From assembly GCA_946401865.1 (NCBI GenBank), contig CAMIVO010000019.1, positions 1 to 35,481 on the forward strand: a DNA stretch of 35,481 nt. Reading direction: 5' to 3'. This DNA is from an uncultured Clostridia bacterium. GTDB lineage: Bacteria; Bacillota; Clostridia; TANB77; CAG-508. The number at the start of each line of letters is the position of its first letter. The first letter of the stretch is position 1. Both the position numbers and the translations under genes were made by a program. Below, in pieces: positions 17,783 to 30,058 of this stretch. Below the pieces are notes generated by a model. The model was not told the origin of the DNA, searched no databases, and was given only the letters and a program-made list of their open reading frames with translations.

Positions 17783-18955
17783 TTATATCCTTTCATAAAA
17801 GCTTCCTGAACCTACATTTCCAGAAGAAGGATTTAGTAAGTTAAAGCTATCATTTTTAATTTCTTCTTTGTATAATTCTTGATATAATTTATAAATATTA
17901 ATAAATTTGCCATTTTTATATATATTTGGAAAGTCTTTAATATCTTTTTCAATAATTTCGTTGGTTTTTACATTTCTAAAATAAACTTTATCAAGCATAT
18001 TAAATAATATTTTGTCATTTGGCGCATCAAGTTCATTTGAAGAAGATATGTAAATATATGGAGTTTGAATCTCTTTAATTGGTCCTTTTTTATTAACATC
18101 ATAATTAGATATATAGTTGTAATTTACAGGAATTGGACGTCTACCAAGCTCAATTTTATATTCTGAGTTACTATCATTTACATGTAAATACCAACTATTT
18201 GCAAAGTCATCTATATCTACTTCAAAAGAATAATTTAGAGTTTCATTATGCACAACTAAAACAGGTTTTGTTATTTCAAAGAAATATTCACCATATTGTT
18301 TTTTTAAACTCTCTCTATCTTCATCAGAAATTTCCCAATAAATAAATAAATTTTTGGGAGTTTGTGCTAATATTTTTACAACTGTTTGATTGTATCTAAA
18401 AGGTAGGTCATAATATTCTGCAGAAAATTGTCTATCTAAAATCTCAACACCTTTTTTTGCTTTAGATACTCTTTTAGTAGCTACAGTTTTTTTCTTAGTT
18501 GTAGTTTCTTTTTTTGGTACTTTAGTTGCTTTGCTGACAGAAGCTTCTTTCTTTTTAGGGACAGAGGCTTTTTTGGTAGCTGTTTTTCTTTTTGTTGTAG
18601 CAGTTTTAGCTAAAGTCTTCTTTGTTGTAGCAGTTTTGGTTAAATTTTTCTTTACTGTAGCAGTTTTAGCTAAAGTCTTCTTTGTTGTAGCAGTTTTGGT
18701 TGAATTTTTCTTTACTGTAGCAGTTTTAGCTGAAGTTTTCTTTGTTGTAACAGCTTTTTTTGCAGTACTTGTTTTTTTTGCTGATGTAGATTTTTTTGCA
18801 GTAGTTGTTTTTTTTGTTGATGTAGATTTTTTTGCAGTAGTTGTTTTTGGGGCAGATGTAGATTTTTTTGCAGATGTAGCTTTAGGCATAGAAGTCTTTT
18901 TAGTTGCTGGTTTATTCAAATCATTTTCAGCGATTTCTTTAGTTTTTCTTGGCAT
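17783..18955 (-). CDS. DUF4912 protein with a histone-H1-like N-terminal tail
   Basis: This 390-aa protein has two parts. Residues 1-168 are almost entirely K, T, A and S in degenerate repeats (units such as TKKTLAKTAT), very basic and disordered, like the tail of histone H1. Residues ~180-290 match DUF4912 (YDLPFRYNQTVVKILAQTP, LFIYWEISDEDRE, SWYLHVND), a beta-rich domain often found beside GH57 enzymes and proposed to bind carbohydrate. The last ~100 residues are less conserved. CAGGAGG lies just before the ATG. It is the first gene of the operon with the GH57 enzyme. The tail could bind DNA, RNA or polyanionic glycan; this is inference. Confidence 0.85.
   Translation of the reverse strand: MPRKTKEIAENDLNKPATKKTSMPKATSAKKSTSAPKTTTAKKSTSTKKTTTAKKSTSAKKTSTAKKAVTTKKTSAKTATVKKNSTKTATTKKTLAKTATVKKNLTKTATTKKTLAKTATTKRKTATKKASVPKKKEASVSKATKVPKKETTTKKKTVATKRVSKAKKGVEILDRQFSAEYYDLPFRYNQTVVKILAQTPKNLFIYWEISDEDRESLKKQYGEYFFEITKPVLVVHNETLNYSFEVDIDDFANSWYLHVNDSNSEYKIELGRRPIPVNYNYISNYDVNKKGPIKEIQTPYIYISSSNELDAPNDKILFNMLDKVYFRNVKTNEIIEKDIKDFPNIYKNGKFINIYKLYQELYKEEIKNDSFNLLNPSSGNVGSGSFYERI
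18601..18750 (-). repeat. 60-bp tandem repeat in the basic tail
   Basis: 18601-18660 and 18661-18720 are nearly identical 60-bp units (single base differences), and a third, diverging copy begins at 18721. Each encodes 20 residues of the K/T/A repeat. The DNA repeat suggests copy-number change by slippage. Confidence 0.85.
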
Positions 18956-21170: not shown

Positions 21171-21743
21171 ATGAAAAAAATCACTGAAAAAATTAAACAG
21201 ACAACATTATTAGAAGATATAATATTTTATGTAATTATTATACCTTTAATTTTGATATCTATAACAATAATTTGGCAACGATTAACAGAACCAGATAAAA
21301 TACCAGATATTTTAGGATACAAAATGTTTGTTGTTTTAGACGGAAATATGGATCAAGCAATTGAATATGGAGATTTAATTTTTACACACAATATTGCTCC
21401 AGAAAATCTTGAAAAAAGCAATTTAATAGCATTTAGAAATAATACTAATAAAGTAACAATACATAGGATTATAAAAATTACAGAAGATGATATTGGAAGA
21501 CAATTTGAAATGCAAAATAGCGTAAATGAGGTTGGAGATACAAAATTTGTAAAAGAAAATCAAGTTGAAGGATTAATTATTCACAGAATTCCTAATATAG
21601 GTATAATATTATATAAAATTCAAGAACCTTATATAATTTTGATTTTAATAGGAATTGTTTTATTAATAGGAATAGTTGCTTACTATATAGCAGGAAGATT
21701 GGACAAAAGAGATATGAAAAAAGCAACTGAAAATAGTTATTAA
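21171..21743 (+). CDS. Signal peptidase I (S26B/SipW-like) homologue lacking the catalytic serine
   Basis: A 190-aa protein with one N-terminal (~16-35) and one C-terminal (~152-170) membrane helix and an S26 core, as in SipW-type peptidases. At the nucleophile position the expected SGSMxP reads DGNMDQ: Asn59 replaces the serine just before the methionine. GDLIF and the general-base-like His98 in VTIHRI are kept, but the usual KGDNN segment reads MQNSVNE. It is therefore probably inactive and may act as a chaperone, adaptor or substrate-holding subunit. The best Shine-Dalgarno (AAAGGA, 21151-21156) is better spaced for an out-of-frame ATG at 21164 than for ATG 21171. The TasA-like gene follows. 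Confidence 0.82.
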   Translation: MKKITEKIKQTTLLEDIIFYVIIIPLILISITIIWQRLTEPDKIPDILGYKMFVVLDGNMDQAIEYGDLIFTHNIAPENLEKSNLIAFRNNTNKVTIHRIIKITEDDIGRQFEMQNSVNEVGDTKFVKENQVEGLIIHRIPNIGIILYKIQEPYIILILIGIVLLIGIVAYYIAGRLDKRDMKKATENSY

Positions 21744-21818: not shown

Positions 21819-22433
21819 ATGGCAAAAAATGAAAGAAAGACAAGAACTAAAAGAGCGATTTTTGTTGTTATAGCACTTTTATTAGTTGCTTACCTAATAA
21901 GTAGTACATATGCTAGATACTCAACAGTAGGAGAAGCAACAGGAAAGGTAGATATAGCAGAATGGCATGTTGTAATGACACCTGATGATGGTGGTGCAGC
22001 ATTAACATCAACTACAAGAGATATTACATTTACAGTACAAAGCAATAATAATGTAGTACCTAATAAAATTGCTCCTGCAGTTACAGCAGTTGCAACAATA
22101 GAATTAGACTTAACAGGGACAGAAGTTGCAGTTGACTTTACCGCTACAGTTGGAGAAATGACAAATAATTTACCATCTGGCGTAACATTACCAAGTAGAG
22201 TAACATTGACTTCTGCTGTTGATGGCGGAACACCTGGAACTGCACAAGTTATTCCTTTAGTTAACAACTCAGCTTTTACAACAACAAATGGCAAAAAGAC
22301 AGTTACATTAACATTAACATGGGAAAATTCAGACACTGATGCAGCAAAAACAGAAGATACAGCTGTTGGCGTAGCTGGTGGAACATTAACAATTCCAGTA
22401 ACATTAACAGTTCAACAACATATCGGTGCATAA
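21819..22433 (+). CDS. TasA/camelysin-like secreted fibre protein 1
   Basis: 204 aa from ATG 21819, directly behind GAAGGGAGG; the TTG at 21801 is upstream of that site. A basic N-terminus and hydrophobic helix end in STYARYSTVGEATGKVDIAEWHV, the pattern of SipW-dependent signal peptides. The mature part is rich in Thr, Ala and Val with alternating beta strands (VVPNKIAPAVTAVATIELDL, KKTVTLTLTWEN), as in TasA-type biofilm fibre subunits. It ends TVQQHIGA, a motif also seen in its two neighbours. Strong ribosome binding site, own promoter and own terminator suggest it is the major subunit. The codon choice is less A+T-rich than that of its neighbours. Confidence 0.85.
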   Translation: MAKNERKTRTKRAIFVVIALLLVAYLISSTYARYSTVGEATGKVDIAEWHVVMTPDDGGAALTSTTRDITFTVQSNNNVVPNKIAPAVTAVATIELDLTGTEVAVDFTATVGEMTNNLPSGVTLPSRVTLTSAVDGGTPGTAQVIPLVNNSAFTTTNGKKTVTLTLTWENSDTDAAKTEDTAVGVAGGTLTIPVTLTVQQHIGA

Positions 22434-22453
22434 GTTAATTTAATTCTAACAAG

Positions 22454-22487
22454 ACACTATCTTAATTTTAAGGTAGTGTTTTATTTT
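22454..22487 (+). terminator. Terminator after TasA-like gene 1
   Basis: ACACTATCTTA (22454-22464) and TAAGGTAGTGT (22469-22479) form an 11-bp stem with one G-T pair and a four-base loop, followed by a T-rich tract. Confidence 0.85.
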
Positions 22488-22498
22488 TGCATATTTTA

Positions 22499-22527
22499 TT
22501 GACAAAGTATACATAATACTATATAAT
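22499..22527 (+). promoter_or_regulatory. Consensus promoter of TasA-like gene 2
   Basis: TTGACA (22499-22504), a 17-bp spacer and TATAAT (22522-22527): perfect sigma-A consensus. Confidence 0.85.
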
Positions 22528-23063: not shown

Positions 23064-23111
23064 AAATCACTATTTTAAGTTTTTTATTAGAGCTTAGGAT
23101 GGTGATTTTTT
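23064..23111 (+). terminator. Terminator after TasA-like gene 2
   Basis: AAATCACTAT (23064-23073) and ATGGTGATTT (23099-23108) pair over 10 bp with one wobble, then a T run. Confidence 0.7.
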
Positions 23112-24024: not shown

Positions 24025-26349
24025 TTGAAAAGAATAAATAAAATTAGAATTAAATATGCTTTATTAATTTCCTTTTTTATAATTTTAGCAACTGTTTTGC
24101 CTACTTTCATGAGATATCAAGCAAGCGTTACAGCAAATGTAGTTGGCTATGCTAAAGAAACGAGAAGAAGTACATACAAAGTAAACTTCCATAGTAATGG
24201 AGGAACTGGTACAATGGCAAGTATGACAGTGAATTATAATGAGGCGGTTAATTTAATCCCAAACACATTCACCAATGAGCCCTCTCACTTTGCAGGATGG
24301 AATACACAGGCAGATGGAATGGGAACAAACTATAGAAATGAGCAAGAAATAATTGAAACAGATTATATTACAGGAAATCAAATAGATTTATATGCAAAAT
24401 GGGCTCAAGGTATTGCAGAGGTAGATGGTAATTTTTATCAGACTTTACAAGCTGCTGTAGATGCAGTACCAAATAATGTACAAAAGACAGTTAAACTTCT
24501 TGCAGATACCGAAGAACAAATAACTATAAAAAAATTGCAGAATATTATATTTGATTTGCAAGACTATACAGTATCAAAAACTTCAGGTAAAGACGGAGTT
24601 TTTGAAAATTATGGTACAATAAGGATAACAAATGGTACATTAACCTCAAGCGTTGATGGTGCCGTATTAAATAACTATCCAGGAGCGACGGCTTATATAT
24701 CTGGAGGAAATTTAATTGGAACATCGACTCTAAAAGGACAAGCTGTTTACAATAAAGGTGGAACAGTAGAAATCTCAGGAACGGCGTATTTAAGTAGTGC
24801 GTCGACAAATAGACCAACAGTACATCATTTAGACAATACACCTAACATTGCTATAACTAGAATATTAGGTGGAACAATTATTGGAACAAGTTATTATGCA
24901 GTAGGGAATGAAAAAGGCGCTAATGCTGTAGAAATTGGTTCAAAAGATGGAAATGTAAGTACAACCACACCAGTAATACAAAGTGGTACTTATGGAATTA
25001 GTAGCTATTCAAATAATGATGGAAGATTTAAGTTTTATGATGGAATTATAAAAGGAAAAACTGGTGCAATAAATAATGAGGCAACACTTATAACTGATGT
25101 AGAAAACTATTGTGAAATAGTACATTCACAAGAAACAATAAATAATCAAACATACAAAACAGCGTATTTGCAAAATACGGCGAATGTAAGGGAAGTAACA
25201 TTTAATCCAAATGGAGGAAATGTAAGTGAACCAACAAGAAGAATTTTAATTGGAGACCCAGTAGGAACATTACCAACTCCAACTAGGGAAGGATATGTAT
25301 TTAATGGATGGTTTACATTAAGTGAAGGTGGAGATCAAATAGATGCAACCACAATTATTACAGCAGATGTTGAATATTTTGCTCAGTGGGAAAAAGCAAA
25401 AGTAGTAACATTTAATCCAAATGGTGGAACTGTAAGTGAACCAACAAGAAGTATTATAAGTGGAAATCCAATAGGAACATTACCAACACCTACTAGAGAT
25501 GGATATGCATTTATTGGATGGTTTACATTAAGTGATGGTGGAGATCAAATAGATGCAACTACAATTATTACAGCAGATGTTGAATATTTTGCACATTGGA
25601 GACTATTATATTTTGCACAAATAGGCAATACTAAATATTATTCATTATCAGCAGCTTTAAATGCTGTGCCAACTACTAATGTTCAAACAACTATAACATT
25701 ATTACAAAATTCAGTTGGAAGCTTTAAAGTTGCTAAAAATAAAAATGTTTTACTAGATTTGAATGGTTATACATTAAGTGTTGCAGAAAATAAAACGGTT
25801 ATAGAAAATAGTGGAACTCTATTGATTACAAATGGTACATTATCATCGACACAGGCAACTGGCGCAATTAATAATTTGGAGAATGCTGTTTTAAGAATTA
25901 CTGATGGAAACTACTCTGCGACACAAAGAGCAGTAATTTATAATACTAATGGTACTGTTGAAATATCAGGTGGAACCTTTACTTCTAATGCTACTGGAAA
26001 TCCTGATAATACAAATGTACCAAGATCAACAATTCAAAATGTTGGAACTAATGGAACAATAACAATAACAGGTGGAACCATTATTGGAACAACTCAACAC
26101 GCAATTTCAGGTGATGGACCTATAATTATAGGTATTAAAGACTCAAATATTAGTAGCACATCGCCAGTTATTAGGGGTAAGCAGTATGGAGTATGGGCTT
26201 CAGGAACATTAGACTTTTATGATGGTGCTATAAAAGGTGTAGCTGATCCAATTTATGGAACTATAACAGATACTGAAGCAAATAGTACACAAGTTACTGG
26301 AACAGAAACAATTGGTAGTGATACATATAAAACTTTACATTTAGAATAA
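24025..26349 (+). CDS. InlB B-repeat / beta-helix surface protein, 774 aa
   Basis: TTG 24025 follows AAAGGAG, 14 bp after the preceding stop. A hydrophobic N-terminal segment (about 9-30) is followed by FMRYQASVTANVVGYAK, resembling the SipW-type signal region. Then come an InlB B-repeat (VNFHSNGGTGTMASMTVNY to DLYAKWA), a parallel-beta-helix-like block (QTLQAAVDAVPNN, TIRITNGTLTSS, GTVEISGTAYLSS), two nearly identical InlB B-repeats (VTFNPNGG ... GYVFNGWFTL) and a second beta-helix block. There is no LPXTG, membrane helix or SLH domain at the C-terminus (YKTLHLE), so anchoring must be through the N-terminus or through the fibre. Probably an adhesin. Confidence 0.88.
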   Translation: MKRINKIRIKYALLISFFIILATVLPTFMRYQASVTANVVGYAKETRRSTYKVNFHSNGGTGTMASMTVNYNEAVNLIPNTFTNEPSHFAGWNTQADGMGTNYRNEQEIIETDYITGNQIDLYAKWAQGIAEVDGNFYQTLQAAVDAVPNNVQKTVKLLADTEEQITIKKLQNIIFDLQDYTVSKTSGKDGVFENYGTIRITNGTLTSSVDGAVLNNYPGATAYISGGNLIGTSTLKGQAVYNKGGTVEISGTAYLSSASTNRPTVHHLDNTPNIAITRILGGTIIGTSYYAVGNEKGANAVEIGSKDGNVSTTTPVIQSGTYGISSYSNNDGRFKFYDGIIKGKTGAINNEATLITDVENYCEIVHSQETINNQTYKTAYLQNTANVREVTFNPNGGNVSEPTRRILIGDPVGTLPTPTREGYVFNGWFTLSEGGDQIDATTIITADVEYFAQWEKAKVVTFNPNGGTVSEPTRSIISGNPIGTLPTPTRDGYAFIGWFTLSDGGDQIDATTIITADVEYFAHWRLLYFAQIGNTKYYSLSAALNAVPTTNVQTTITLLQNSVGSFKVAKNKNVLLDLNGYTLSVAENKTVIENSGTLLITNGTLSSTQATGAINNLENAVLRITDGNYSATQRAVIYNTNGTVEISGGTFTSNATGNPDNTNVPRSTIQNVGTNGTITITGGTIIGTTQHAISGDGPIIIGIKDSNISSTSPVIRGKQYGVWASGTLDFYDGAIKGVADPIYGTITDTEANSTQVTGTETIGSDTYKTLHLE
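25195..25614 (+). repeat. 210-bp tandem duplication encoding two InlB B-repeats
   Basis: 25195-25404 and 25405-25614 are two copies of a 70-codon unit starting GTAACATTTAATCCAAATGG. Many stretches are identical at DNA level, including the region encoding TTIITADVEYFA. Confidence 0.9.
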
Positions 26350-26376: not shown

Positions 26377-26994
26377 ATGATTTATACTAATGAAATTATA
26401 AAGAAAAAATACGAAAAAAAGTTAATTATAAAAAGATTGCTTAAAATAGTTTATGTACCAATTATTGCAGGTATTATTTTAATAACAATACTTGCAGGGT
26501 ACAAAAAATGTGTAAAGCATGAAAACAATATTAGTATTTTGGGATTTAGACAATATGTAGTTTCTACAGGAAGTATGGAACCTGAATATAATATTGGAGA
26601 TTTAATAGTTATAAGAGAAACAACAAAGGAAGAAATAAAAATCGGAGATGTAATTAATTATATCTCCGAAACCGGAATAGATACAATAACTCATAGAGTA
26701 GTAGATATAATACAAAAAGATGGACAAACTTACTATAAGACAAAAGGAGATAACAACAATAGTGTAGATCCAGAATTAGTAAACTATAGCCAAGTGAAGG
26801 GAATATTAGTATTTAAAATAAGCAAATTAGGAACAGTCATTACAAAAATGTTTACTGGAACAGGAATTACAATTCTATTTGCAGTTATTATATTATCATA
26901 TATAAGAGATAAAAACAAAGAAGAAAAAATAATATCAAGAGAAAATGCGAGAAAGCTATATAATGTTCCAAAATATGAGGAGAATGATAGTTAA
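26377..26994 (+). CDS. sipW: SipW-type signal peptidase I, catalytically intact
   Basis: An ER-type (S26B) signal peptidase of 205 aa. ATG 26377 follows GGGGGATA; the TTG at 26365 is upstream. A membrane helix (about 24-41) precedes the active site: Ser66 in VVSTGSMEPEYNIGDLIV and His106 in TITHRVVD, the Ser-His pair of SipW enzymes rather than the Ser-Lys of standard bacterial SPases. TKGDNN follows, then a C-terminal helix (about 160-178). SipW of Bacillus processes TasA and TapA; here it sits in the operon of TasA-like gene 3. Its stop overlaps the next ATG by one base. Confidence 0.9.
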   Translation: MIYTNEIIKKKYEKKLIIKRLLKIVYVPIIAGIILITILAGYKKCVKHENNISILGFRQYVVSTGSMEPEYNIGDLIVIRETTKEEIKIGDVINYISETGIDTITHRVVDIIQKDGQTYYKTKGDNNNSVDPELVNYSQVKGILVFKISKLGTVITKMFTGTGITILFAVIILSYIRDKNKEEKIISRENARKLYNVPKYEENDS

Positions 26995-28094
26995 TGATAT
27001 TTTACAATGATAAGAATATAAGAAAAAAAATCGAATTGGATTACAAAGAACTAGAAAATTATAAAAATTCATATAGCAAAAGAATATCTTTATATAATAC
27101 ATATTTAGATACTATGCAAGTATTTGAAGATGGAATTGTTGAGAGAAATAATCTAAATAAAGAGGATATGGAAAACAAAAAGCAAGTATTTCAAACGCAA
27201 ATTAATAAAATTGATAATAATTTAGAACTATTGACAAATTTACTAAGAAATATTGATTCAACAGGTAATATAGGAGTAGAAAAGAAAATATTAAATAAAT
27301 ATAATCAAAAATACAGAGAAATTAGAAATAATTATATAGTTAATAGCATTTTTGAAGAACAGTTAACAGAAAATTATATAAATGTATTAATGATTGATTT
27401 AGCAAAAACACTCGAAAAAATGAAGGAAGAACACGAAAAAGAAATGGAAAAAGTATTAACTGAAAAAGAAAATATTCAAAATGTAACAGAGAAAAAAGAA
27501 AATGTTATACAAGAAGATCAAATAGTAAATTATATAGATGAAACAGAAGATAAAGAAATTCATATAAAAAATAACAATACACTTTTAATATCTGAAAAAC
27601 AGGGGAAAGTTATATTACCATACAAAGCAGAAGAAGTATTAAGAATTCTTAATAAGGAGAAGAGTAAATACAGTTCTGTAGAAGAAGTAATAGAAGATAA
27701 ATTTACAAGAAATTTTTCAGACTTTAAAATACAATTTGCAAGTAGATATGCTGAAACAATAAGATTAGCTAGAGAAAGGGAGAATTATAGTTTTATTGAT
27801 GCAGTAACAATAGCAACAGAAATGATGAGAAAAAAATTTTTACACCCTGCTATAATTTCTGCATGTAGAACTCTAAACGAATTGGATGTATATTTGGATT
27901 GCCTTGATAAAAATGAGTTAGAAGATTTTAAGATATTTAATGTTAAATATGAATTATATCCAATGGTTGTAAAATCATACAATAATGGAAAAAGAGCCAA
28001 ACATAATGAAAATCCAGATTTAAAAATATTTAGTAAAATAAAAAGAATTTTCAAAATGGACAATAGAGAAACTCATAAGGCATATGACAAATAA
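26994..28094 (+). CDS. Unknown coiled-coil protein coupled to sipW
   Basis: 366 aa, not recognised. ATG 26994 overlaps the sipW stop (TAATG), with a GAGGAGA site inside sipW, so translation is coupled. Residues ~1-180 are charged and predicted helical coiled coil (KEHEKEMEKVLTEKENIQN-like). Residues ~205-340 look like a compact conserved domain (ILPYKAEEVLRIL, FKIQFASRYAETIRLARERE, HPAIISACRTLNELDVYLD). There is no signal peptide or membrane segment, so it is probably cytoplasmic. A regulatory or assembly role for the fibre locus is possible from context only. Confidence 0.75.
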   Translation: MIFYNDKNIRKKIELDYKELENYKNSYSKRISLYNTYLDTMQVFEDGIVERNNLNKEDMENKKQVFQTQINKIDNNLELLTNLLRNIDSTGNIGVEKKILNKYNQKYREIRNNYIVNSIFEEQLTENYINVLMIDLAKTLEKMKEEHEKEMEKVLTEKENIQNVTEKKENVIQEDQIVNYIDETEDKEIHIKNNNTLLISEKQGKVILPYKAEEVLRILNKEKSKYSSVEEVIEDKFTRNFSDFKIQFASRYAETIRLARERENYSFIDAVTIATEMMRKKFLHPAIISACRTLNELDVYLDCLDKNELEDFKIFNVKYELYPMVVKSYNNGKRAKHNENPDLKIFSKIKRIFKMDNRETHKAYDK

Positions 28095-28484: not shown

Positions 28485-29168
28485 ATGATAGAATTTAGAA
28501 ATGTTAATAAAACATATGATACAGGCACAAAAGCTGTAAAAAATGCAAATTTTTTAATAGAAAAAGGTGAATTTTGCTTTTTAGTTGGAACCTCTGGAAG
28601 TGGAAAATCAACTTTAATAAAATTAATTTTAAAAGAAGAAGAACCAACTTCAGGAAATATAATTATAAATGGAAAAGACACAACATTTTTAAAACCAAGT
28701 AGAGTTCCATATTTAAGAAGAAGTATGGGGGTTGTTTTTCAAGACTTTAGATTATTACCTGACAAAACAGTATATGACAATGTTGCATATGCAATGTATA
28801 TAGTTCGTGCAACAAGTCGCCACATACGTAGACAAGTTCCAATGGTACTTTCACTTGTTGGATTAAGCGGAAAAGCCAAAATGTATCCAAATGAGCTTTC
28901 AGGTGGTGAGCAACAAAGAGTGGCTTTAGCAAGAGCAATGGTTAATAATCCATCAATGCTTATAGCTGATGAGCCTACAGGAAATCTAGACCCAGATACA
29001 GCTTGGGATATAATGAATTTACTAAATGATATAAATATGAGAGGAACAACAGTTGTAGTTGCAACACATGCAAAAGATATAGTAGATAAAATGAAAAAAA
29101 GAGTTATACATATAGAAAAAGGCGACATTATTAGAGATGATAAAAAAGGTGGTTATGATGAAATATAA
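28485..29168 (+). CDS. ftsE: Cell-division ABC transporter ATPase FtsE
   Basis: 227-aa ABC ATPase. Walker A GTSGSGKST (residues ~35-43), Q-loop VVFQDFRLLPDKTVYDNV (the sequence typical of FtsE), signature LSGGEQQRVALARA, Walker B MLIADEPTGNLDP and the switch His in VVATHAKD are all intact. FtsE with FtsX forms a transmembrane complex that turns ATP hydrolysis into activation of periplasmic or extracellular peptidoglycan hydrolases. It has its own promoter; ftsX overlaps its 3' end by about 11 bases. Confidence 0.97.
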   Translation: MIEFRNVNKTYDTGTKAVKNANFLIEKGEFCFLVGTSGSGKSTLIKLILKEEEPTSGNIIINGKDTTFLKPSRVPYLRRSMGVVFQDFRLLPDKTVYDNVAYAMYIVRATSRHIRRQVPMVLSLVGLSGKAKMYPNELSGGEQQRVALARAMVNNPSMLIADEPTGNLDPDTAWDIMNLLNDINMRGTTVVVATHAKDIVDKMKKRVIHIEKGDIIRDDKKGGYDEI

Positions 29169-30058
29169 TGTGTTTACCTACTTAGTAGGAGAAGGATTTT
29201 CAAATATATTTAAAAATAAAAAACAAGCATTTACCTCATTTGGAACAATGTGTTTAATAATGATATTTTTTGGGTTCTGCTTTATAATAGTAGGAAACTT
29301 TAATCACTTTATTAAACAAGTAGAATCACAACAAGGAATACAAGCATTCATTAAAAAAGATGCAACAGAAGAAGAAATAGAAGAGGTTAAAAGACAAATT
29401 AACGAAATAGCAGAAATAAATACTATAGATTTTGTTTCTCAAGAACAAGCCTTAGAATCAGTAAAGCAAAGAGTTTTTCGCGATAGAGCAGATTTAATAA
29501 GTGGTTATGATGTTAGTATATTTAAACCATCATATAAAATAACACTTACAGATATTACAAAAACCGTAGAAGTTAAGGAAAAACTGCTTCAAATAGAAAA
29601 TATAGTTAAAGTAACAAATACAGATGATGTAATTGAAGTTTTAATTAAAATAGCAAGACGGAATAAAAATAGGTAGTTATACAATAATCATTGCATTAAT
29701 TGCTGTTAGTATATTTATTATTTCAAATACAATAAAACTTACAGTTTATGCAAGAAGAAAAGAAATTTCTATTATGAAATATGTTGGAGCAACAAATAGT
29801 TTTATAAGATGGCCATTTATAGTAGAAGGAATTATTATTGGACTTTCTTCAGGAATAGTTTCTCTTATAATAGTTTCAGGATTATATATGTTAGTAAGTA
29901 GAAATATTTCTTTTATAAATTTCCTAGCTAATTTAGGATTAAGGCTTTTAGAATTTAAAGAAATGTTTAGTGTTATTGTAATTGTATACCTAGTTTTAGG
30001 AATGGGCATAGGAATAATAGGTAGTACAAGATCAATGAAAAAATATTTAAAAGTTTAA
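29158..30058 (+). pseudogene. ftsX: FtsX permease, interrupted by a +1 frameshift
   Basis: FtsX is the membrane partner of FtsE. ATG 29158 (or 29155) lies inside the end of ftsE behind AAAGGTGG. The first part has the N-terminal helix and the extracellular domain (GIQAFIKKDATEEEIEEVKRQ). The frame stops at TAG 29674-29676 after reading AGA CGG AAT AAA AAT AGG. Skipping one base at about 29659 (AGA-GGA-ATA) restores KIARGIKIGSYTIII and the three C-terminal helices (ISNTIKLTVYARRKEISIMK). The restored protein would be about 299 aa, normal for FtsX. Explanations are a sequencing error, a real mutation, or programmed frameshifting at a rare CGG codon. Confidence 0.85.

What the first reader, a model, noticed from the sequence alone, without database searches (positions are those of the whole stretch)
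21171..21743. Signal peptidase pseudoenzyme: nucleophile serine replaced by asparagine
Compared with the intact paralogue at 26377 (STGSMEPEY, KGDNN), this protein reads LDGNMDQAI and MQNSVNE at the aligned sites, so both the nucleophile and a conserved Asp-containing segment are lost, while the membrane helices, GDLIF and His98 are kept. Selective loss of catalytic residues with the fold kept suggests a non-proteolytic role such as substrate binding or partnering with the active SipW.
Basis: partly seen in the sequence, partly recalled or inferred. Interest (0 to 1): 0.72.

Follow-up and report, generated by a model that had tools for sequence, protein, structure and literature searches.

The report
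Dead signal peptidase beside TasA-like genes
This Clostridia genome carries a signal-peptide-cutting enzyme that has lost its cutting residues but has been kept by selection for a long time, next to genes for fibre-like surface proteins of the sort such enzymes normally trim, which suggests that it now binds or helps assemble those proteins instead of cutting them.

Summary
ORF 21171-21743 is an S26B (SipW/Sec11-type) signal-peptidase homologue with Ser59 -> Asn and Asp117 -> Ser; His98 and the GDL motif are kept. Nine members of one clade (UFBoot/SH-aLRT 100/100), spread over three families of one Clostridia order, all lack a usable catalytic set. The Ser column reads N,D,D,K,Y,N,Q,Y; the ninth keeps a Ser but has His and Asp deleted. 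So Asn59 itself is not conserved, but inactivity is. The sister clade has ordinary LSGSM/TKGDxN motifs. dN/dS is below 1 and new clade-specific invariant residues replace TKGDNN, so this is not decay. In 8/9 genomes the dead gene sits directly before a TasA-like gene, in a locus with a second, intact signal peptidase from one matching clade. Unexpectedly, two more dead lineages (types II and III) occur in the same genus, paired with an active peptidase or a TasA-like gene. Most likely role: membrane-anchored binding or assembly factor for TasA-like subunits, analogous to S. pyogenes SipA. Loss of catalysis is well supported (~0.95); the mechanism is inferred (~0.45).

The parts
21171..21743 (+). 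Dead S26B (SipW/Sec11-type) signal-peptidase homologue, 190 aa: N-terminal TM helix, small beta domain, C-terminal TM helix
21345..21347 (+). Codon of Asn59 (aat) at the nucleophile-serine column; D, K, Y, N, Q or S in the other clade members
21462..21464 (+). Codon of His98, the retained general-base histidine column (8 of 9 clade members)
21510..21530 (+). MQNSVNE (residues 114-120), replacing TKGDNNN; catalytic Asp -> Ser117; Met114 and Glu120 are clade-specific invariants
21819..22433 (+). TasA-like secreted protein 1; a TasA-like gene is directly downstream of the dead peptidase in 8 of 9 clade genomes; AF2 model matches donor-strand pilins and the TasA fibre
22451..22482 (+). Terminator-like hairpin with T-rich tail after TasA-like gene 1 (fold z -6.0); makes a dead-peptidase + TasA1 transcript plausible
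22499..22527 (+). Perfect TTGACA-17-TATAAT promoter-like site before TasA-like gene 2; also present in relative L039
22559..23062 (+). TasA-like protein 2
23064..23108 (+). Second hairpin (20 bp stem, z -6.1) after TasA-like gene 2; same sequence in L039
23387..24010 (+). TasA-like protein 3
24025..26349 (+). Secreted protein with Listeria-Bacteroides (Flg_new) repeats
26377..26994 (+). Intact S26B signal peptidase (STGSM, THR, KGDNN) of the same locus; belongs to one clade with its counterparts in the other dead-peptidase loci
26994..28094 (+). Coiled-coil protein without TM, 1-base overlap with the intact peptidase; counterpart gene next to the intact peptidase in L031, L032, L073, L074

Best explanation
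A duplicated SipW-type signal peptidase in a TasA-like surface-fibre locus lost catalysis in an ancestor of the nine-member clade, and kept its membrane anchors, beta fold and probably its peptide groove. It now most likely binds the signal-peptide or N-terminal region of the neighbouring TasA-like subunits at the membrane, and holds or presents them for cleavage by the intact peptidase and for fibre assembly. Shown here: loss of the catalytic residues, one clade, purifying selection, fold, gene neighbourhood. Inferred: binding of TasA-like precursors, and the assembly role, by analogy with S. pyogenes SipA. In B. subtilis TasA the strand just after the cleavage site is the donor strand of the fibre (PMC9674648), so holding that end would directly gate polymerisation.
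For: All nine clade members lack a usable catalytic set, with a clear score gap to intact relatives: at least 208 versus at most 173 bits. The clade has 100/100 support and groups with intact first-slot SipWs at 99/94. NG86 dN/dS is 0.18-0.53; binomial p 0.002 and 0.001 for two pairs. Ser59, Thr97, Thr114, Gly116 and Asp117 are lost, while G67-D68-L69, H98, E133 and G134 are kept and Asp16, Gln36, Thr72, Met114, Glu120, Lys125 and Ala174 are newly (nearly) fixed. AF2 pLDDT 85.5, with SEC11 and SipA as top folds. A TasA-like gene lies directly downstream in 8/9, and its model matches donor-strand pilins and the TasA fibre. Type III dead homologues precede a TasA-like gene in 15/15 loci. SipA: same fold, dead, groove kept, essential for pilus polymerisation (PMC4049620).
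Against: No binding, expression or phenotype data; no complex could be modelled. Adjacency to a TasA-like gene is ancestral (intact sisters have it too), so it need not reflect the new function. G219 keeps the dead gene without any TasA-like gene beside it, although TasA-like genes and another signal peptidase lie elsewhere in that genome. The TasA-like call rests on a predicted fold with weak Foldseek values (E about 1e-3; no family-library or PDB sequence hit). Retention of His98 without Ser and Asp is not explained by a pure groove-binding role.
Confidence: 0.45

Rival explanations
1. Regulatory or structural partner of the intact signal peptidase: dead and active paralogues form a heteromer in which the dead subunit sets substrate choice or stability.
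For: In 8/9 genomes an intact peptidase lies in the same locus, and these intact proteins form one clade (100/99). Type II dead homologues overlap an intact peptidase gene in 12/12 loci. Pseudoprotease partners of active proteases are known from other families (iRhom-ADAM17, found).
Against: G219 lacks the partner beside it but kept the dead gene. SipW-type peptidases are not known to need a partner (own knowledge). Co-inheritance in one locus also follows from common descent or joint transfer.
Confidence: 0.3
2. Cleavage-independent signalling: the protein senses or regulates matrix-gene expression or surface attachment, like the second role reported for B. subtilis SipW.
For: SipW of B. subtilis was reported as bifunctional (Terra et al. 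2012, cited in PMC4551309; the paper itself was not readable here).
Against: The window protein has little cytoplasmic sequence (short termini around two TM helices), and no regulator in the locus was identified as a partner.
Confidence: 0.1
3. Altered catalysis with another nucleophile or a Ser-less mechanism.
For: His98 is kept in 8/9 members.
Against: The nucleophile column holds N, D, K, Y, Q; the Asp column holds S, Q, L, P, I; the column two before the nucleophile (Ser/Thr in intact forms) is Asp/Asn/Lys; one member lacks His. No conserved candidate nucleophile exists.
Confidence: 0.03
4. Decaying gene without function, or sequencing/assembly error.
For: The named relatives are all metagenome-assembled genomes; one member (G367) has an internal deletion.
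Against: Intact ORF in nine genomes over three families, dN/dS below 1, new invariant residues, deep divergence (down to 34% identity) without stops.
Confidence: 0.05

Closest known systems
SipA (LepA) of Streptococcus pyogenes pilus loci (PMC4049620; PDB 4n31)
   Same: Signal-peptidase fold without catalytic residues (Ser -> Asp), membrane-anchored, encoded beside surface-fibre genes; next after the two SEC11 chains in Foldseek and rank 2 by VIA-align
   Different: SipA descends from Ser-Lys (S26A) peptidases and serves sortase-built pili; this protein descends from S26B (Ser-His-Asp, SipW/Sec11) and sits with TasA-like genes; no sortase gene was recognised in the part of the window studied (17-30 kb)
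SipW of Bacillus subtilis / sipW-bsaA of Clostridium perfringens (PMC4551309, PMC7395162)
   Same: Same peptidase family; gene lies beside a fibre-protein gene; in C. perfringens sipW-bsaA is bicistronic with a terminator after bsaA, as the window layout suggests
   Different: Those are the peptidases needed for export and processing; here the slot is held by a dead homologue and a second intact copy is present
Eukaryotic SEC11A/SEC11C (PDB 7p2p, 7p2q)
   Same: Best sequence and fold match in the PDB
   Different: Catalytic subunits with an intact active site, part of the ER signal peptidase complex
SpsA of Staphylococcus aureus (PMC12445088)
   Same: Signal-peptidase homologue lacking catalytic residues beside an active paralogue (SpsB)
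   Different: S26A type, reported as dispensable; no fibre locus known to me

Membership tests
S26B signal peptidase (SipW/Sec11 type) | Sequence homology to family models | tested here: met
   NF046067 E 9e-16 (below its 190-bit equivalog cutoff), TIGR02228 52.4 bits over cutoff 51.85; all 9 clade members match both models
S26B signal peptidase (SipW/Sec11 type) | Signal-peptidase beta fold with membrane anchor | tested here: met
   AF2 pLDDT 85.5; SEC11C Z 10.6, SEC11A Z 9.7
S26B signal peptidase (SipW/Sec11 type) | Nucleophile serine in SGSM | tested here: not met
   Asn59; 8 of 9 clade members lack Ser
S26B signal peptidase (SipW/Sec11 type) | General-base histidine in THR | tested here: met
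   His98 kept; deleted only in G367
S26B signal peptidase (SipW/Sec11 type) | Catalytic aspartate in KGDNN | tested here: not met
   Ser117 in MQNSVNE; lost in all 9
S26B signal peptidase (SipW/Sec11 type) | Cleaves secretory precursors | not testable with these tools
   needs biochemistry
SipA-type pilus assembly pseudo-peptidase | Signal-peptidase fold lacking catalytic residues | tested here: met
SipA-type pilus assembly pseudo-peptidase | Encoded in a surface-fibre locus | tested here: inconclusive
   TasA-like genes adjacent in 8/9 loci, but their fibre nature rests on a predicted fold only
SipA-type pilus assembly pseudo-peptidase | Descent from Ser-Lys (S26A) signal peptidases | tested here: not met
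   retains S26B-type His98 and groups inside S26B sequences
SipA-type pilus assembly pseudo-peptidase | Required for fibre polymerisation | not testable with these tools
   needs genetics
TasA-like fibre subunit (neighbour gene 21819-22433) | TasA / donor-strand fold | tested here: inconclusive
   AF2 pLDDT 85.3; Foldseek E 4-9e-4 to CfaB, FimG, PapG and TasA fibre 8aur; no Pfam, NCBIfam or PDB sequence match

The most novel reading that the evidence does not exclude
In these Clostridia, TasA-like fibre loci repeatedly turned SipW-type signal peptidases into non-cutting proteins. At least two and probably three separate lineages (types I, II, III) are each kept beside a TasA-like gene or an intact peptidase, pointing to an unrecognised class of S26B pseudo-peptidases that act as holdases or assembly platforms for donor-strand fibres, or as heteromeric partners of active SipW.
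Probability: 0.4. Interest if true: 0.72.

Novelty: new variant of a known kind. Interest (0 to 1): 0.55.

Why it matters
Dead signal peptidases are known from the Ser-Lys branch (SipA, SpsA). In the papers that could be searched, none was found described in the Ser-His-Asp (SipW/Sec11) branch. If the role is confirmed, signal-peptide recognition and cleavage have been split between two proteins, and TasA-type fibres in Clostridia would have a dedicated membrane assembly factor where B. subtilis uses TapA. It also warns about annotation: the window protein passes the NCBIfam cutoff for 'signal peptidase I' (52.4 versus 51.85 bits) although it cannot work as one by the known mechanism.

Tried and rejected
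One-genome mutation or sequencing error: rejected by nine orthologues. A substitute nucleophile: rejected because no residue is conserved in the column. Asn59 as a functional residue: rejected, since its closest relatives carry Asp. A single origin of dead types I and II: AU test p 0.0083 (the grouping was chosen after seeing the first tree, so indicative only); type III was not placed in a tree. Pfam gave no usable match for the dead protein. The genome-contig scan with the three-member profile returned only four loci, all members of the clade. Class-level sampling (391 genomes) gave no further type I member. TasA-like proteins gave no hit in Pfam, NCBIfam or PDB sequences, so they were judged by predicted fold. 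The B. subtilis SipW paper (PMC3370629) is not held. A complex of the dead protein with the active peptidase or a TasA-like protein could not be predicted with the tools at hand. Type II loci (3.5 kb stretches) showed no TasA-like gene within the DNA held.

Full report
OBSERVATION. The ORF at 21171-21743 is intact (190 aa). Against the intact paralogue (26377-26994) the nucleophile motif reads LDGNM instead of TGSM and the aspartate segment reads MQNSVNE instead of TKGDNNN, while GDLIF, His98 and both hydrophobic helices remain. Homology is firm: SipW model E 9e-16, TIGR02228 52.4 bits; by sequence the best solved structures are SEC11C and SEC11A. An AlphaFold2 model (84-row alignment, pLDDT 85.5, pTM 0.67) has SEC11A/C and S. 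pyogenes SipA as its best Foldseek matches and Z 9.7-10.6 to them.

IS IT ONE GENOME ONLY? No. Searches of about 977 distinct genomes (handles G000 to G976) found nine members, all in the window's order: six in the same genus, one elsewhere in the same family, two in other families. On a profile of the nine, the members score at least 208 bits and all other S26B proteins at most 173 (the profile was built from the members, so part of the gap is by construction, but the three-member profile already put the others at 177 or above and the intact ones at 168 or below, with the partial G367 at 147). Nucleophile column: N (window), D, D, K, Y, N, Q, Y, and S in G367. Aspartate column: S, S, S, Q, L, P, I, L, deleted in G367. 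Histidine: kept in eight, deleted in G367. So the particular Asn is not conserved, but the loss of a usable triad is. G367 has a Ser but lost His and Asp in one deletion, so it is inactive by another route.

HISTORY. In an IQ-TREE analysis with the three catalytic columns masked, the nine form a clade (100/100) grouped at 99/94 with the intact proteins that hold the same first slot in other genomes (same picture with 111 rows). The intact second peptidases of the eight dead-peptidase loci form their own clade (100/99). Two of these loci (G081, G121) lie in other families yet nest inside both clades, which suggests that the two genes moved together (inference). The ancestral locus apparently had two intact peptidases, and one stopped cutting.

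IS IT KEPT BY SELECTION? NG86 dN/dS is 0.18 (G000-G250), 0.45 (G000-G035) and 0.38-0.53 for the other wide pairs; the deficit of replacement changes gives binomial p 0.002 and 0.001 for the two pairs tested. Synonymous counts are small or the sites partly saturated, so these are supporting values. More telling, the clade fixed residues of its own: Asp16, Gln36, Thr72, Met114, Glu120, Lys125 and Ala174 are (nearly) invariant in the dead clade but not in the intact sister; the old TKGDNN loop became FxM[QK]xxxxExxDTK[YF]V in most members (alignment). That is remodelling, not erosion.

NEIGHBOURHOOD. In eight of nine genomes the dead gene is directly followed by a TasA-like secreted protein, usually further such proteins, then an intact peptidase; a coiled-coil protein follows the latter in most. 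The TasA-like protein has a conserved GTYARY signal-peptide end. Its model (pLDDT 85.3) matches donor-strand pilins and the TasA fibre, at modest E-values of 4-9e-4; no family library recognises it, so TasA-like is a fold-level statement. In the window a strong hairpin with T-rich tail follows the first TasA-like gene (z -6.0) and a perfect promoter-like site precedes the second (the promoter-like site also in L039; not in L031). This suggests that the dead peptidase and TasA-like 1 share a short transcript, as reported for sipW-bsaA of C. perfringens (PMC7395162). The exception is G219, where the dead gene stands alone near cell-wall genes, with TasA-like genes and other signal peptidases elsewhere.

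OTHER DEAD LINEAGES. Type II (12 genomes of the genus with E at most 3e-46): Ser -> L/K/A, His -> mostly N (also S, D), Asp -> N/I, always overlapping or abutting an intact peptidase gene. Some His columns print V or I in the automatic alignment because of a gap shift; the RINK motif shows Asn. Holding types I and II together is rejected (AU p 0.0083), with the caution that the grouping was chosen after the first tree. Type III (19 of 98 sampled genomes): nucleophile column K/E/D/N, S in two; no catalytic His in that strand; followed by a TasA-like gene in 15/15 loci examined. So first-slot dead homologues next to TasA-like genes recur.

MECHANISM. Best supported: a non-cutting, membrane-anchored factor that binds TasA-like precursors or freshly cut subunits. 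The analogy is SipA, a dead signal peptidase with a preserved groove that is essential for pilus polymerisation (PMC4049620). In B. subtilis the residues just behind the SipW cut form the donor strand that links TasA subunits (PMC9674648), and TapA acts as chaperone (PMC10151520); no TapA was recognised here (one TasA-like row has only a chance-level match to TIGR04087). A dead SipW holding that end could do a related job. This last step is inference. The main rival is a heteromer with the intact peptidase; type II pairs favour it, G219 speaks against an obligate form for type I. Conservation of His98 without its catalytic partners stays unexplained.

VERDICT. The pseudoenzyme claim is confirmed and extended; the function is open between substrate/assembly factor (0.45) and peptidase partner (0.3). 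New variant of a known kind.

Noticed in passing
L160-L171 (for example L181:5022-6141): Type II dead S26B proteins: Ser -> L/K/A, His -> N/S/D, Asp -> N/I, each overlapping or abutting an intact signal peptidase gene, in 12 genomes of the genus.
   Followed up: partly
L180:1304-1885; L182-L196: Type III dead S26B-like proteins (K/E/D/N, twice S, at the nucleophile; no His, no KGD) that directly precede a TasA-like gene in 15/15 loci; G035 and G250 carry types I and III.
   Followed up: partly
L074:9266-9739 (G367): Clade member with a Ser at the nucleophile site but with the His strand and the Asp segment removed by an in-frame deletion; an assembly error is not excluded.
   Followed up: partly
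window 26994-28094: Coiled-coil protein with no TM and no Pfam or NCBIfam match, next to the intact peptidase in several of these loci; a conserved unknown part of the locus.
   Followed up: no
window 29137-29676 and 29774-30058: FtsX-like protein appears split over two frames downstream of the FtsE-like gene at 28485; frameshift or sequencing error.
   Followed up: no
window 17783-18955: Protein with a long Lys/Thr/Ala repeat tract (KKTSTAKK) before a folded-looking C-terminal part, upstream of the locus and on the other strand.
   Followed up: no
window 21462-21464 and orthologues: His98 is kept in 8 of 9 dead proteins although Ser and Asp are gone; no explanation beyond a structural or binding role.
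   Followed up: partly
L180:1304-9699 (G036): One locus interleaves several signal peptidases, active and dead, with several TasA-like genes, as if each subunit had its own peptidase.
   Followed up: no
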